Source: Myxacorys almedinensis A (GTDB lineage Bacteria; Cyanobacteriota; Cyanobacteriia; Leptolyngbyales; Leptolyngbyaceae). Taken from it: a stretch of DNA of 64,000 nucleotides. The stretch lies in assembly GCF_010091945.1 (NCBI RefSeq), contig NZ_WVIE01000010.1, positions 62,001 through 126,000 on the forward strand, in the 5' to 3' direction. A program made the position numbers and the translations under genes. Shown here one piece after another: positions 1-33,696 of this stretch. Under the pieces are notes generated by a model. The model was given only the letters and a program-made list of their open reading frames with translations, searched no databases and was not told where the DNA came from. Numbering within the stretch: the stretch's first letter is position 1; each line of letters begins with the position of its first letter.

Positions 1-1976
1 AGCACTACCAAACTAGCCTCCGCGTGGTTGACCCTGCCATTGGGCAGCAAGTCGAACGGGCGCTGGGGCAAGCCGTCTATTCTGCAACCGAGTCTAATCG
101 GCTATCTGGGCAGCAGAGCGAGGTGCGCTGCGTCAGCATTCGCCCAGACAGTGAATATATTCTGACCTGTAGCGACGACGGAAGAGCCACCCTCTGGCGA
201 CGAGACGGCTCCCAAGTCACTACCTTGAAAGGGCACCAATCGAGTGTTTTAGCCGCCGCCTTTAGCCCCAATGGCACGACGATCGCCACGGCAGGGGCAG
301 ACAACACCATCCGGCTCTGGACGCACGATGGGTGGCTCGTCCGGTCTCTGCCAGGACATGCTGCCTCGATCAATGGACTCGCCTTTAGCCCCGATGGGCA
401 AAGCCTTGCATCCGCTAGCCAAGACAACACCATCAAACTCTGGAACCGCGAGGGCACGCTGCTCAAAACCCTCGACGGGCATCAGGCACCGGTGCAGAGC
501 GTCAGCTTCAGCCCGGATGGGCAGGGGTTGATCTCTGGCAGCCTAGATCAGACGATCAAGCTCTGGAACCGCGAGGGCACGCTGCTCAAAACCCTCGATG
601 GGCATCGAGATGGAGTCATGAGCGTGGCGTTTCACCCCGATGGTCAATCGTTTGTCTCTGGGGGGCTAGACGATAAGATTCGCCTATGGCGACGAGATGG
701 CACGCTGATCAACGCGCTGAACAGTGATCATCAAGGGGTGACGGCGATCGCAATTCGCGCTGATGGAGCCGCGATCGCATCGGTTGGCTTCGATAAAACG
801 CTGAAACTTTGGGGACGCGATGGCACGTTGCTGACGACGCTACGAGGGCACGACAATATTATTTGGAGCGTAGCGTTTAGCCCAGATTACCAGTACGTGA
901 TGACCGCCAGTGCCGATCAGAGCGCCCGGATGTGGCGCTTAAACGGCGGACTGTTGACTCGTGTAGAAGGGCATCGATCCCTCGTGCAGTCGGTAAATTT
1001 TAGCGCCGATGGAAAATTGCTGATCAGCGCAAGTCAAGATAAAACCGTCAAGTTCTGGACGCAGAGCGGAATTTTGCTGAAGACACTTCGCGGCGATTGG
1101 CGCTGGGTGACAGAGGCAAAAGCCAGCCCCGATGGCAAAGAGATTGCCTTGGTTGAGTTTGATCAAGACATTCAGCTACGAAACCGCCACGGCGTGCTGA
1201 TCAAAACGTTGGCTGAGCCTGGGGAAACCATTTACAGCCTAGAGTTTAGCCCAGCAGGAGACTGGTTTATTACGGGCGGGCGCAAAAAGCAGATTAGACT
1301 GCGACAGCGCGATGGAACGCTCATTAAAACCTTGACGGGGCATACTAATGCGATTCGGAAGGTGGCGGTGAGTGCCGATGGTCAGAAAATTGCGTCTGCC
1401 AGCTTAGATGGCACGGTAAAACTTTGGCGAGTCAAAGATGGGGCACTGTTGGCAACGTTAGCTGAGCATCAAGCGGATGTCCGAGCGGTGGCGTTCAATC
1501 CTAGAGCAACTCGCGCTTCTGCAACGTTAGTAGATAGTGTGGCAGTGCCGATCGCAGGTGCAAACCCGGTTGCCCTGGCCAGTGGAGGCTCTGACAAAAC
1601 AGTCAGGCTCTGGACGCTAGACGGCACGCTGCTCAAAACGTTAGACGGGCATCAAGGCACGGTGTATGCGGTGAAGTTTAGCCCAGATGGGAAGATGATT
1701 GTGTCAGCTAGTGCAGATAAAACAATCAAATTATGGGCACTAGATGGAACGCTATTACGAACGCTGAGTGGGCAAACCGATGCTATTCGAGGTATTGATT
1801 TTAGCCCGGATGGAAAATTGCTGGCATCTTCTAGCGCCGATAAAACAATTATCGTGTGGAATTTGCAGCAAGTTCTGACGCTCGATCCTAAAACAGCCGC
1901 CTGCAACTGGGTGCGAGATTATTTAAAGACAAATCGCGAGGTTGAGAGCCGCGATCGCGCCCTCTGCGATGATTAG
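1..1976 (+). CDS. WD40 repeat protein, C-terminal part (5' end outside window)
   Basis: The reading frame is open to the left edge (first full codon at base 3), so the GTG at 24 is probably not the true start and an N-terminal region is missing. About 14 WD40 blades can be counted, each ending in a D-x-T-I-x-L-W type motif followed by a GH of the next blade, which is enough for two seven-bladed propellers. Blade 11 carries an Ala/Val-rich insert of about 23 residues. Cyanobacterial proteins of this kind usually carry an N-terminal nSTAND, caspase-like or kinase domain, and the short segment before blade 1 resembles the linker found there; that is inference. Blades 3 and 4 end in an identical 18-residue stretch encoded by near-identical DNA. 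The likely role is a protein-interaction scaffold; the specific function is unknown. Confidence 0.9.
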   Translation, partial: HYQTSLRVVDPAIGQQVERALGQAVYSATESNRLSGQQSEVRCVSIRPDSEYILTCSDDGRATLWRRDGSQVTTLKGHQSSVLAAAFSPNGTTIATAGADNTIRLWTHDGWLVRSLPGHAASINGLAFSPDGQSLASASQDNTIKLWNREGTLLKTLDGHQAPVQSVSFSPDGQGLISGSLDQTIKLWNREGTLLKTLDGHRDGVMSVAFHPDGQSFVSGGLDDKIRLWRRDGTLINALNSDHQGVTAIAIRADGAAIASVGFDKTLKLWGRDGTLLTTLRGHDNIIWSVAFSPDYQYVMTASADQSARMWRLNGGLLTRVEGHRSLVQSVNFSADGKLLISASQDKTVKFWTQSGILLKTLRGDWRWVTEAKASPDGKEIALVEFDQDIQLRNRHGVLIKTLAEPGETIYSLEFSPAGDWFITGGRKKQIRLRQRDGTLIKTLTGHTNAIRKVAVSADGQKIASASLDGTVKLWRVKDGALLATLAEHQADVRAVAFNPRATRASATLVDSVAVPIAGANPVALASGGSDKTVRLWTLDGTLLKTLDGHQGTVYAVKFSPDGKMIVSASADKTIKLWALDGTLLRTLSGQTDAIRGIDFSPDGKLLASSSADKTIIVWNLQQVLTLDPKTAACNWVRDYLKTNREVESRDRALCDD

Positions 1977-31484: not shown

Positions 31485-32357
31485 TCAGGCAATCTCTTCA
31501 GAGTTGCGGGGTGTGCTAAGGGCAAGTTCTGTGCCGTATAGCTTGCGCCCAACCGCTTCTGCGATCGGCTTTAAACTGCGAACCAACGCGACCATATCAG
31601 CGAGGCAAAGCGCTTGACGGGCATCGGAAACCGACTGTTCAGGATCGGGATGGCATTCAACGATCAGCCCATCGGCTCCGCACGCGATCGCGGCTCTTGA
31701 TAAGTCGGCAATCAGTTCTCGCTTGCCCGCCGCATGACTTGGATCAACCAAAATCGGCAAGTGAGTAATCTGCCGCAATGCCGCGACTGCGCCCAAATCC
31801 AACACATTTCTCGTGTAGGCATCGAAGCTGCGGATGCCCCGCTCACAAAGAACAACTTGTGAATTGCCATGGCTGACAATGTATTCTGCCGCCATCACAA
31901 ATTCTTCGATCGTCGCGGCAAGCCCCCGTTTAAGCAGAATTGGCTTCTTTGCCTGCCCCAACGCCTTCAGCAAATCGAAATTCTGCATGTTACGGCTGCC
32001 GACTTGCAACATATCCGCAGCGGCGGCAATCTCCTCAATTTGGGAAATTGCCATCACTTCGGTCACAACCGGCAAGTCATAGCGTTGCCGCACCGATGCC
32101 AAAATTTCTAGTCCCTCGCTGCCCATTCCCTGGAAGGCGTAAGGTGAGGTGCGCGGCTTGTAGACGCCTCCTCGGAGGGCTTGAATCGGAGCCGACTTGA
32201 GAGTACGAGCGACGGTTTCCATCTGGCTCAAGCTTTCAACGGTGCAGGGTCCGCCGATGATCACGATCTCTGCACCGCCGATAGAGACGAGATCAGAGAG
32301 CGGCACGATTGTCTTGTGGTCAGAGGTGAGCTTTGTAACTAGGGTTGCGCCTTGCAT
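31485..32357 (-). CDS. aroF: 3-deoxy-D-arabino-heptulosonate 7-phosphate (DAHP) synthase, type I-beta
   Basis: 290 residues. Condenses phosphoenolpyruvate and erythrose-4-phosphate, the first step of the shikimate pathway. Motifs: GGPCTVESLSQ, RGGVYKPRTSPYAFQGMG, VLCERGIR, and LPILVDPSHAAGKRELI (metal site). It lacks the N-terminal ferredoxin-like/ACT regulatory extension that many type I-beta enzymes carry, so feedback inhibition may be weak. Control seems instead to lie in the long upstream leader, which holds two tandem aromatic-rich attenuators (see the entries from 32423 to 32759). A strong AAGGAG ribosome-binding site precedes the ATG at 32357. Confidence 0.95.
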   Translation of the reverse strand: MQGATLVTKLTSDHKTIVPLSDLVSIGGAEIVIIGGPCTVESLSQMETVARTLKSAPIQALRGGVYKPRTSPYAFQGMGSEGLEILASVRQRYDLPVVTEVMAISQIEEIAAAADMLQVGSRNMQNFDLLKALGQAKKPILLKRGLAATIEEFVMAAEYIVSHGNSQVVLCERGIRSFDAYTRNVLDLGAVAALRQITHLPILVDPSHAAGKRELIADLSRAAIACGADGLIVECHPDPEQSVSDARQALCLADMVALVRSLKPIAEAVGRKLYGTELALSTPRNSEEIA

Positions 32358-32422
32358 TGCGATGACTCCTTAAGAACGAATTCCTGAACAACTAATTTCT
32401 GAACAGCAGATGATTGACCAAC

Positions 32423-32454
32423 AAAAAAGCCCAGAACCGTTTGAGTTCCGGGCT
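32423..32454 (-). terminator. Intrinsic terminator of attenuator 2
   Basis: On the minus strand, 5' arm AGCCCGGAAC (32445-32454), 7-base loop, 3' arm GTTCTGGGCT (32428-32437), then six Ts. Ten base pairs with one G-U pair. It lies 66 bases before the DAHP synthase start. The segment GTTCTGGG that overlaps the end of leader frame 2 (32479-32486) equals the first eight bases of the 3' arm, so it can compete for the 5' arm and block the terminator. Confidence 0.85.
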
Positions 32455-32475
32455 GAAGAATTCCATGAAGAACTT

Positions 32476-32538
32476 TCACCCAGAACGGAGTGGGAGCCAA
32501 AAATAGAAGCCGAAAAACCAAAGGGTGAGGGAAGGCAT
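32476..32538 (-). CDS. Leader peptide 2, aromatic-rich, of the DAHP synthase gene
   Basis: Twenty codons from ATG at 32538: MPSLTLWFFGFYFWLPLRSG. Seven of the 20 residues are aromatic (Trp 7, Phe 8, 9, 11, 13, Tyr 12, Trp 14), packed in eight codons. The last three codons contain GTTCTGGG, which pairs with the 5' arm of the terminator just downstream. A ribosome stalled on the aromatic run would leave that segment free to act as antiterminator; a ribosome reaching the stop codon would cover it and let the terminator form. No clear Shine-Dalgarno precedes the ATG, as is common in cyanobacteria. Confidence 0.7.
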   Translation of the reverse strand: MPSLTLWFFGFYFWLPLRSG

Positions 32539-32577
32539 AGGAGGGATAAGGTAGAACTCGATGAAAACAGAAACCCA

Positions 32578-32607
32578 TTAAAAAACCGCAGATGTTACTC
32601 TGCGGTT
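32578..32607 (-). terminator. Intrinsic terminator of attenuator 1
   Basis: On the minus strand, 5' arm AACCGCAGA (32599-32607), 6-base loop GTAACA, 3' arm TCTGCGGTT (32584-32592), followed by Ts and an AA. Nine perfect base pairs. The 5' arm with its two flanking bases (TGAACCGC) is also perfectly complementary to GCGGTTCA (32641-32648) inside leader frame 1, giving a competing hairpin. Confidence 0.85.
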
Positions 32608-32630
32608 CACCAGGCGAAGACAAGCTTCAT

Positions 32631-32690
32631 TCACGCCGGATGAACCGCCTCTCGCCAAAAAAAGTAAAAGTAGGATGGGATGTAGTGCAT
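32631..32690 (-). CDS. Leader peptide 1, aromatic-rich, of the DAHP synthase gene
   Basis: Nineteen codons from ATG at 32690: MHYIPSYFYFFWREAVHPA. Seven residues are aromatic (Tyr 3, 7, 9; Phe 8, 10, 11; Trp 12). Codons 15-17 hold GCGGTTCA, the antiterminator segment that pairs with the 5' arm of terminator 1. Trp 12 ends only six bases before that segment, so stalling on the earlier Tyr and Phe codons is the more likely trigger. Frame and stop lie just before terminator 1. An internal frame MKLVFAW (32607-32630) is regarded as chance. Confidence 0.7.
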   Translation of the reverse strand: MHYIPSYFYFFWREAVHPA

Positions 32691-32730
32691 CACTAAAAAC
32701 AATGATTCGGAAGAATGTTGATTACTCTAG

Positions 32731-32759
32731 ACCGTAACAAAGGGATCTTCAGAAGTCAA
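32731..32759 (-). promoter_or_regulatory. Promoter of the DAHP synthase leader
   Basis: Minus strand -35 TTGACT (32754-32759), 17 bases, -10 TACGGT (32731-32736): close to the sigma-70 consensus with ideal spacing. Transcription would start near 32724, about 34 bases before leader frame 1, giving a leader of about 370 nt before the DAHP synthase start. Confidence 0.7.
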
Positions 32760-32982
32760 GTCCCCGGTTGGGGGAGGAGAGCGATTAGCGCAGAGCGCAA
32801 CTCCGTAGGAACCGCTTCAATTTACCCTGCTTCAAGTTACCCGCAGGGGACGCATCAAAAATTGAGTACATTCATCAACGCACGGGTAATGCAAGCGCGA
32901 TCGCGGAACGTTTCTGCTTACCTCACTGAAGCAGCGTATTATAGGAACGTTTCTGACGATCCCAGCTACTTATCAACGAACA

Positions 32983-33696
32983 ATGAAATCTACAGTAGAA
33001 CAAATCCGCCAACGCTTTGACAGCGATGTTGAACGCTTTTCCAATTTGGAGACAGGACAATCTGCAACGATTGATGCACCCGTTTCGTTGGAATTAGTCG
33101 TTCAGGCTGCCTCTGCCACTAAACCTGATGCAACGCACGTTTTAGACATTGGTTGTGGCGCGGGAAATTATTCACTCAAGTTGCTCGAAGTTCTACCGCA
33201 TCTAAACGTTACGCTGATTGATTTGAGTCAGCCTATGCTCGATCGTGCAGTGCAACGGGTTGGTTCGGCGACTTCCGGCAATGTTACCGCTATTCAAGCA
33301 GATGTACGAGATTTAGAATTGGGGCAGTCCCAGTTTGATGTCATCTTAGCCGCCGCCGTTTTTCATCATTTGCGCGATGATCAGGACTGGAAACAGGTGT
33401 TCACAAAATGCTATCAGGCACTCAAACCCAGTGGCTCGTTGTGGATTGTTGATCTTGTCACCCATTCTACGTCTCAAGTTCACGAGATGATGTGGCAGCG
33501 TTACGCAGGCTACTTAACGCAACTCAAAGATGAAGAGTATCGTGATGAGGTGTTTGCTTACATCGAGCAAGAGGATACGCCGCGACCCCTGATGTACCAA
33601 CTAAATTTATTACGTGAAGTTGGTTTTAATCAAGTTGAAGTGCTTCACAAAAATAGTTGTTTTGCAGCCTTTGGAGGTATCAAGTCAGGGACATGA
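32983..33696 (+). CDS. Class I SAM-dependent methyltransferase
   Basis: 237 residues. Motif I is VLDIGCGAGNYSLKLLE (about residues 48-64), motif II LIDLSQPML (acidic end of strand 2), motif III IQADVRDLELG, and motif IV FDVILAAAVFHHLRDD. The C-terminal part has LKPSGSLWIVDLV. Substrate not predictable; the fold and length match small-molecule methyltransferases. Divergent from the DAHP synthase leader, with about 220 bases between; a 12-bp repeat GGAACGTTTCTG (near 32906 and 32943) lies just upstream. Confidence 0.9.
   Translation: MKSTVEQIRQRFDSDVERFSNLETGQSATIDAPVSLELVVQAASATKPDATHVLDIGCGAGNYSLKLLEVLPHLNVTLIDLSQPMLDRAVQRVGSATSGNVTAIQADVRDLELGQSQFDVILAAAVFHHLRDDQDWKQVFTKCYQALKPSGSLWIVDLVTHSTSQVHEMMWQRYAGYLTQLKDEEYRDEVFAYIEQEDTPRPLMYQLNLLREVGFNQVEVLHKNSCFAAFGGIKSGT

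What the first reader, a model, noticed from the sequence alone, without database searches (positions are those of the whole stretch)
32358..32760. Two ribosome-mediated attenuators in series control a short DAHP synthase
Seen: one consensus-like promoter (TTGACT-17-TACGGT), then attenuator 1, attenuator 2 and the gene, all in about 370 nt. The enzyme (290 residues) lacks the N-terminal regulatory extension of many type I-beta DAHP synthases. Established: DAHP synthase is the entry step and is commonly feedback-controlled. Inference: polymerase must pass both terminators, so the tandem pair acts like an AND gate and may sense different aromatic residues (first mainly Tyr/Phe, second mainly Trp/Phe), replacing allosteric control. 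I know of no described cyanobacterial attenuator of this type.
Basis: partly seen in the sequence, partly recalled or inferred. Interest (0 to 1): 0.97.

Follow-up and report, generated by a model that had tools for sequence, protein, structure and literature searches.

The report
Twin aromatic attenuators before DAHP synthase
In front of a gene for the first enzyme of aromatic amino acid synthesis, many filamentous cyanobacteria carry two back-to-back RNA switches that appear to let the ribosome itself measure phenylalanine, tyrosine and tryptophan supply, a type of control that cyanobacteria were not reliably known to have.

Summary
On the minus strand a promoter (32759-32731) is followed by leader ORF 1 (MHYIPSYFYFFWREAVHPA), terminator 1, leader ORF 2 (MPSLTLWFFGFYFWLPLRSG), terminator 2 and a 290-residue DAHP synthase without the ferredoxin-like regulatory domain. 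My detector finds no third such unit in the 64 kb and none in 3000 shuffles. Covariance models place both units upstream of 131 of 143 orthologues among 388 class genomes, one copy each; the only other hits are two loci where the contig cuts the gene and three relics. A helix search without prior structure recovers terminator and antiterminator as the two longest helices of each unit, with compensatory changes. The promoter is conserved in 49 of 53 genomes. Tandem ribosome-mediated attenuation is strongly supported by comparison, not by experiment. The proposed division of labour is not supported by codon content: Phe, Tyr and Trp all occur in 81 and 80 of 83 leaders, though Trp codons are better placed in unit 2. 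The pair more likely multiplies repression from one input. The regulatory domain is in 0 of 54 leader-bearing enzymes and 20 of 20 paralogues. New variant of a known kind.

The parts
32731..32759 (-). promoter: TTGACT, 17-nt spacer, TACGGT with TG one base before the -10
   Evidence: Sequence; pattern TTGACN-16..18-TAnnnT within 120 nt before leader 1 in 49 of 53 nr genomes, all 49 with that TG; background 0.029 per 120 nt; 0 copies between leader 1 and the gene in 17,780 bases
32631..32690 (-). leader ORF 1, MHYIPSYFYFFWREAVHPA*
   Evidence: Translation; conserved in relatives
32634..32648 (-). antiterminator arm A1 inside the last codons of leader 1 (GCGGTTCATCCGGCG)
   Evidence: Pairs with 32602-32616; 11-pair core found de novo, 94.5% of cells paired, 7 of 11 pairs with changes on both sides
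32602..32616 (-). arm B1, overlapping the 5' side of terminator 1
32580..32608 (-). intrinsic terminator 1 (GAACCGCAGA / UCUGCGGUUU plus U tract)
   Evidence: z -4.95; 100% of cells paired in 38 sequences
32476..32538 (-). leader ORF 2, MPSLTLWFFGFYFWLPLRSG*
   Evidence: Translation; conserved in relatives
32478..32486 (-). antiterminator arm A2 in the last codons and stop of leader 2 (GTTCTGGGT)
   Evidence: 8-pair core found de novo; 94.1% of cells paired
32445..32454 (-). arm B2, shared by antiterminator 2 and the 5' side of terminator 2
32422..32454 (-). intrinsic terminator 2 (AGCCCGGAACT / GGTTCTGGGCT plus U tract)
   Evidence: (z -5.11)
31485..32357 (-). short type I-beta DAHP synthase (290 aa), no FXD domain
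   Evidence: NCBIfam TIGR01361 355.4 bits versus cut-off 267.75; Pfam

Best explanation
The 5' leader of this DAHP synthase mRNA holds two complete ribosome-mediated transcription attenuators in series. Shown by sequence and comparison: each unit has a short ORF with a run of Phe, Tyr and Trp codons; its last codons contain an RNA arm (A) that pairs with B, and B overlaps the 5' side of an intrinsic terminator (B:C). Inferred: when an aromatic aminoacyl-tRNA is short the ribosome stops in the run, A is free, A:B forms before C is made, and polymerase reads on; when all three are plentiful the ribosome reaches the stop codon, covers A, B:C forms and transcription ends. Because both units carry codons for the same three amino acids, polymerase must escape the same test twice, so the read-through fractions should multiply: a lower off state and a steeper response for an enzyme that lacks the usual regulatory domain.
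For: Both units called automatically in 90 of 106 orthologue loci with at least 500 nt upstream, the window included; both covariance models hit upstream of 131 of 143 orthologues in 388 genomes, one match per genome. The two longest helices of each alignment, searched without prior structure, are the antiterminator and the terminator; 0 of 500 shuffles reach the observed covariation score for any of the four helices. Six codons follow the last aromatic codon in 73 of 83 leaders 2, and six or seven in 65 of 83 leaders 1. In the run of leader 2 (31 leaders of equal length) 739 of 982 single-base codon differences are at third positions, while codons of arm A are fixed also at third positions (GTT 34 of 34, CAC 31 of 34, GGG 27 of 31). 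Ribosome-mask folding of 54 genomes: mean leader:B pairs before the 3' arm exists are 9.4-14.4 with the ribosome 8-13 codons before the stop (unit 1) and 10.6-11.9 at 7-13 codons (unit 2), and 0.0 at the stop. Three relics lie where the gene is broken or gone. Units that stand alone carry all three aromatic codons in 8 of 8.
Against: No expression data. At equilibrium the whole-RNA fold often favours the terminator even with a stalled ribosome: the base of terminator 2 is below 0.5 in only 15-35% of 54 genomes at 7-14 codons before the stop (in this window 0.67-0.96), and terminator 1 in 47-70% at 9-14 codons but only 4% at 8 codons, where its Trp codon usually stands. So a kinetic argument is needed, and Trp sensing by unit 1 is doubtful in this model (one footprint size tried). 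In this window unit 1 also terminates in the model with the ribosome on early codons. Three covariation measures were no better than shuffles: further pair types for terminator 1, and pairs changed on both sides and further pair types for antiterminator 2. The swapped-arm test is fair for unit 1 (own better than the median in 87% of 54) and weak for unit 2 (65%). Leader 2 holds more Trp (1.83 versus 1.11 per leader).
Confidence: 0.83

Rival explanations
1. The two attenuators weigh the amino acids differently (first mainly Tyr/Phe, second with Trp), so that the pair works as a true AND gate.
For: Leader 2 has more Trp codons (1.83 versus 1.11 per leader). The Trp of unit 1 stands 8 codons before the stop in 74 of 83, where only 4% of 54 equilibrium folds release the terminator; unit 2 has its first Trp codon 14 before the stop in 67 of 83, and its last at 7 in 73 of 83.
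Against: All three aromatic codons are in 81 of 83 leaders 1 and 80 of 83 leaders 2, and Trp is in 83 of 83 of both. Where only one unit is left it still has all three (8 of 8). At 8 codons before the stop of unit 1 the kinetic measure still gives 9.4 leader:B pairs.
Confidence: 0.18
2. A riboswitch or protein-binding leader that senses a metabolite, with the ORFs incidental.
For: Parts of the segments between leader and terminator are conserved within groups.
Against: Leader 2 shows frame-wise third-position change (leader 1 less clearly), the codons fit the pathway, and the longest helices are the two switch helices; Rfam has no match in the window.
Confidence: 0.04
3. Constitutive terminators with expression from a promoter downstream, or leader ORFs that only raise translation by re-initiation.
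For: Many equilibrium folds terminate; a re-initiation role for leader genes has been proposed (PMC4833913, passages and Discussion read).
Against: 0 matches to the promoter pattern in 17,780 bases between leader 1 and the gene against about 4 expected, and the pattern stands before unit 1 in 49 of 53; other promoter types were not scanned there. The leader 2 stop is 118 nt from the gene here; antiterminators co-vary.
Confidence: 0.05

Closest known systems
Corynebacterium glutamicum aroR leader of aroF (DAHP synthase); passage in review PMC11802643, primary paper not seen
   Same: Ribosome-mediated attenuator of a DAHP synthase with a Phe-Tyr-Phe leader peptide.
   Different: One leader peptide is described; responds to Phe and not Tyr according to the review; Actinobacteria. 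Sequence kinship not tested.
uORFC-13-1 motif upstream of aroF in Acholeplasma (PMC8632094, section read)
   Same: Candidate uORF attenuator before a DAHP synthase gene, with possible promoter and terminator.
   Different: One unit, a U run coding for at least one Phe, 24 representatives, limited to Acholeplasma and environmental sequences.
Salmonella mgtCBR tandem attenuators (PMC3641672, abstract and one Discussion section read)
   Same: Two leader ORFs and two attenuators in series in one mRNA leader.
   Different: Different signals (ATP and proline), stem-loops that do not resemble intrinsic terminators, transport and virulence operon; [quoted passage not shown]
E. coli trpL/pheL attenuators (mechanism recalled; mentioned in PMC11802643)
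   Same: Stall at end-product codons switches antiterminator against terminator.
   Different: Single unit; in trp a separate protecting hairpin is central (recalled), here arm A lies within the leader ORF and no protecting hairpin was established.

Membership tests
Ribosome-mediated transcription attenuators of amino acid genes | Short ORF with regulatory codons for the end product | tested here: met
   Both leaders; F, Y and W in 81 of 83 and 80 of 83 nr genomes; third-position change clear in leader 2, less so in leader 1. Translation itself not shown
Ribosome-mediated transcription attenuators of amino acid genes | Intrinsic terminator between leader ORF and gene | tested here: met
Ribosome-mediated transcription attenuators of amino acid genes | Mutually exclusive antiterminator that shares the 5' arm of the terminator | tested here: met
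Ribosome-mediated transcription attenuators of amino acid genes | Geometry: stall in the codon run exposes, arrival at the stop hides, the antiterminator arm | tested here: met
   Position and kinetic measure; equilibrium model weak for unit 2 and for the Trp codon of unit 1
Ribosome-mediated transcription attenuators of amino acid genes | Read-through rises when the cognate tRNA is uncharged | not testable with these tools
   needs experiment
Rfam amino-acid leader families | Match at the gathering score | tested here: not met
   0 matches in the window
Type I-beta DAHP synthases (TIGR01361) | Catalytic domain above curated cut-off | tested here: met
   355.4 bits versus 267.75
FXD-regulated type I-beta DAHP synthases | N-terminal ferredoxin-like domain PF18152 | tested here: not met
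   0 of 54 leader-bearing proteins, 20 of 20 paralogues
Tandem attenuators with different signals (mgtCBR type) | The two units sense different signals | tested here: inconclusive
   Same three codons in both leaders, but Trp codons differ in number and place; needs experiment

The most novel reading that the evidence does not exclude
A cyanobacterial family of tandem attenuators in which two all-aromatic (Phe, Tyr, Trp) ribosome sensors in series give one promoter a multiplicative, switch-like response and stand in for the missing allosteric domain of DAHP synthase; it would be the first well-supported ribosome-mediated attenuation in Cyanobacteria and evidence that their transcription and translation are closely coupled at this locus.
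Probability: 0.58. Interest if true: 0.82.

Novelty: new variant of a known kind. Interest (0 to 1): 0.74.

Why it matters
Attenuation by leader peptides is a textbook mechanism, but a 2016 paper still described cyanobacteria as lacking reliable data for it (PMC4833913). A pair conserved before 131 of 143 orthologues makes several questions testable: whether transcription and translation are coupled in cyanobacteria, what a repeated attenuator gains over a single one (natural one-unit lineages exist), and whether RNA control can replace feedback inhibition at the entry of the shikimate pathway, which matters for engineering aromatic products in cyanobacteria.

Tried and rejected
Different amino acids per unit: not supported by codon content, but not excluded, since the Trp codons differ in place.

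Other copies in the same genome: the second-best hit of model R1 (E 0.04) lies antisense in what I read as a secA gene, and the weak R2 hits have E 4.7 and 9.3; all taken as noise. Leaders before the genome's other DAHP synthases: my filter found none before the FXD type I-beta gene; I saw none before the type I-alpha-like gene by eye. Rfam: nothing. The first mask model scored inner terminator pairs, which can coexist with the antiterminator; I replaced that score by the base of the stem.

Misses and dropped rows: four of the 110 orthologue loci (L031, L053, L054, L105) had under 500 nt upstream and are outside the 106. Of the 16 loci of the 106 without two called units I printed eight (last 420 nt): L017, L051, L070, L099 and L106 show both units by eye; L096, L112 and L048 show unit 2 only in that stretch; the other eight were not read one by one. 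Earlier detectors used other thresholds and are superseded. Some loci are near-duplicates (for example L006 and L035), hence sets of 83 (distinct leader pairs), 54 and 38. In one search one of 54 was dropped for a short upstream. In one search I kept orthologues of 65% identity or more from a printed list cut at E 6.7e-85; fragments below that, such as the one in G037, are not counted. Of the 12 orthologues without both hits, 7 had unit 1 only (G323 shows both by eye), 4 unit 2 only (G030 is at a contig end, G088 shows both by eye) and 1 is cut (G269). Five genomes without a counted orthologue had element hits: G135 and G152 (gene cut by the contig end, both leaders present), G141 (pseudogene), G016 and G027 (relics).

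Not done: a tree of the enzymes or of unit losses, structure prediction, a test of whether the two units arose by duplication, other ribosome footprints than one.

Full report
What is there. The window lies in a cyanobacterium close to Myxacorys (90% identical orthologue in Myxacorys californica). On the minus strand the order is promoter, leader ORF 1, terminator 1, leader ORF 2, terminator 2, gene. Leader 1 reads MHYIPSYFYFFWREAVHPA and leader 2 MPSLTLWFFGFYFWLPLRSG. The terminator hairpins score z -4.95 and -5.11 against shuffles. A composite detector finds these two units and no other in the 64 kb on both strands, and none in 3000 dinucleotide shuffles of the 403-nt region. A simpler consensus scan finds only terminator 2 of these features. 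Rfam has no match in the window.

The gene. The 290-residue protein is a type I-beta DAHP synthase (TIGR01361, 355.4 bits versus cut-off 267.75). It matches chain 1rzm from residue 72 on and has no FXD domain. The genome has three further PF00793 genes: one I read as type I-alpha (L001, from length and match only), an FXD-bearing type I-beta enzyme (L002; PF18152 E 1.9e-16) and one that looks like KDO8P synthase (L004, my reading).

Conservation. Of 110 orthologue loci, the window included, 106 had at least 500 nt upstream; both units were called automatically in 90, one in 15 and none in 1. Eight of those 16 were printed; five show both units by eye. Models R1 and R2 were built from 38 diverse sequences each and run over 388 genomes of the class: R1 hit 143 and R2 139, one match per genome. 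In the same genomes I counted 143 orthologues of at least 65% identity (list cut at E 6.7e-85); in 131 both elements lie just upstream on the same strand, in 7 only unit 1, in 4 only unit 2, and in 1 the contig is cut. Two of the single cases show both units by eye (G323, G088). Element hits without a counted orthologue came from five genomes: two where the contig end cuts the gene, one where unit 1 runs into a DAHP synthase pseudogene, and two decayed relics without the gene. A 59-genome draw from the phylum gave no R1 hit in its 38 genomes outside the class.

Switch structure. Searching all column pairs of each alignment for stacked helices gave as the two longest, without prior structure, the antiterminator and the terminator, which overlap. 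Antiterminator 1: 94.5% of cells paired, 7 of 11 pairs with changes on both sides; terminator 1: 100%, 4 of 9; antiterminator 2: 94.1%, 2 of 8; terminator 2: 95.3%, 5 of 10. In each case 0 of 500 shuffles reached the covariation score and slid versions score lower; but further pair types for terminator 1, and pairs changed on both sides and further pair types for antiterminator 2, were no better than shuffles. Related sequences can exceed shuffles, so I lean also on the de novo recovery and on triplets that change together, read by eye (for example unit 2 of L106, L014 and L034). Swapping arms between genomes weakens the A:B duplex: own arm better than the median swap in 87% of 54 for unit 1, but only 65% for unit 2.

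Coding signature. In leader 2 (31 leaders of equal length) the aromatic run varies mostly at third codon positions (739 of 982 single-base differences), whereas arm A is fixed at third positions too. Leader 1 (34 leaders) is less clear (390 of 910 at third positions). Six codons follow the last aromatic codon in 73 of 83 leaders 2, and six or seven in 65 of 83 leaders 1, as needed for a stalled ribosome to leave arm A free.

Ribosome model. Masking the ribosome and folding the rest (54 genomes) shows mean leader:B pairing before the terminator's 3' arm exists of 9.4-14.4 pairs with the ribosome 8-13 codons before the stop in unit 1, 10.6-11.9 at 7-13 codons in unit 2, and 0.0 at the stop. At equilibrium of the whole RNA the switch is weaker: the base of terminator 1 falls below 0.5 in 47-70% of genomes at 9-14 codons before the stop but in only 4% at 8 codons; terminator 2 in 15-35% at 7-14 codons; in this window unit 2 stays at 0.67-0.96. 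The Trp codon of unit 1 stands at 8 codons in 74 of 83. Hence a kinetic, co-transcriptional switch is inferred, and Trp sensing by unit 1 is the least certain part.

Promoter. TTGACN-16..18-TAnnnT stands within 120 nt before leader 1 in 49 of 53 nr genomes against 0.029 expected per 120 nt, and 0 times in 17,780 bases between leader 1 and the gene, where about 4 would be expected. All 49 have TG one base before the -10, and the spacer is 17 in 29 and 18 in 20.

What each unit senses. Phe, Tyr and Trp codons are all present in 81 of 83 leaders 1 and 80 of 83 leaders 2, and in 8 of 8 leaders that stand alone. The pair therefore most likely has one input, any aromatic shortage, and two gates, with the expected gain a product of read-through fractions. 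Leader 2 has more Trp, including an early codon 14 before the stop in 67 of 83, so unequal weight for Trp remains open.

Regulatory domain. None of 54 leader-bearing proteins has PF18152 (for the 53 relatives the frame was extended back to the previous stop), while 20 of 20 type I-beta paralogues do. No R1 or R2 hit lies at these 20 loci, and one search shows no unit-1- or unit-2-like leader there. One of them (L146) has a different candidate aromatic leader with a terminator, so regulatory domain and leader control may not always exclude each other. The short enzymes are one group of close orthologues (no tree was built), so the correlation may count as a single event.

Literature. Ten searches of the open-access library were made; nothing in the listings pointed to a cyanobacterial ribosome-mediated attenuator of amino acid genes. 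PMC4833913 (passages and Discussion) states there is no reliable data on attenuation in cyanobacteria. Closest: C. glutamicum aroR-aroF (passage in review PMC11802643), Acholeplasma uORFC-13-1 (PMC8632094, section), Salmonella mgtCBR tandem attenuators (PMC3641672, abstract and a section). PMC2965389, PMC1262725, PMC8079986 and PMC7997468 were searched for terms only. Subscription papers and supplements are not covered, so priority is not proven.

Verdict. It is a new variant of a known mechanism in a phylum where I found no established case.

Noticed in passing
L146 (G053:C15:366000-368300): An FXD-bearing DAHP synthase (PF18152 E 3.2e-23) is preceded by an unrelated candidate leader MKNSQFWYSFTFRSATGVRHRSG and a strong terminator-like hairpin: possibly an independent aromatic attenuator.
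   Followed up: no
L130 (G141:C48), L131 (G016:C221), L132 (G027:C109): Relics: unit 1 running into a DAHP synthase pseudogene, and decayed units 1 and 2 without the gene.
   Followed up: partly
L135 and L137-L141; L143, L144: Natural one-unit variants: unit 1 only (G317 and family f11) or unit 2 only (G031, G347), useful as controls.
   Followed up: partly
window 32983-33696 (+): Divergent SAM-dependent methyltransferase-like gene (none of the 25 NCBIfam models shown, of 61, passes its cut-off).
   Followed up: no
G046 and other family f13 genomes: Several genomes show only the attenuated short enzyme and no second type I-beta match at the thresholds.
   Followed up: no
L106: A contig titled Candidatus Obscuribacterales bacterium SW_5 carries the same tandem leader; binning error or transfer, not checked.
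   Followed up: no
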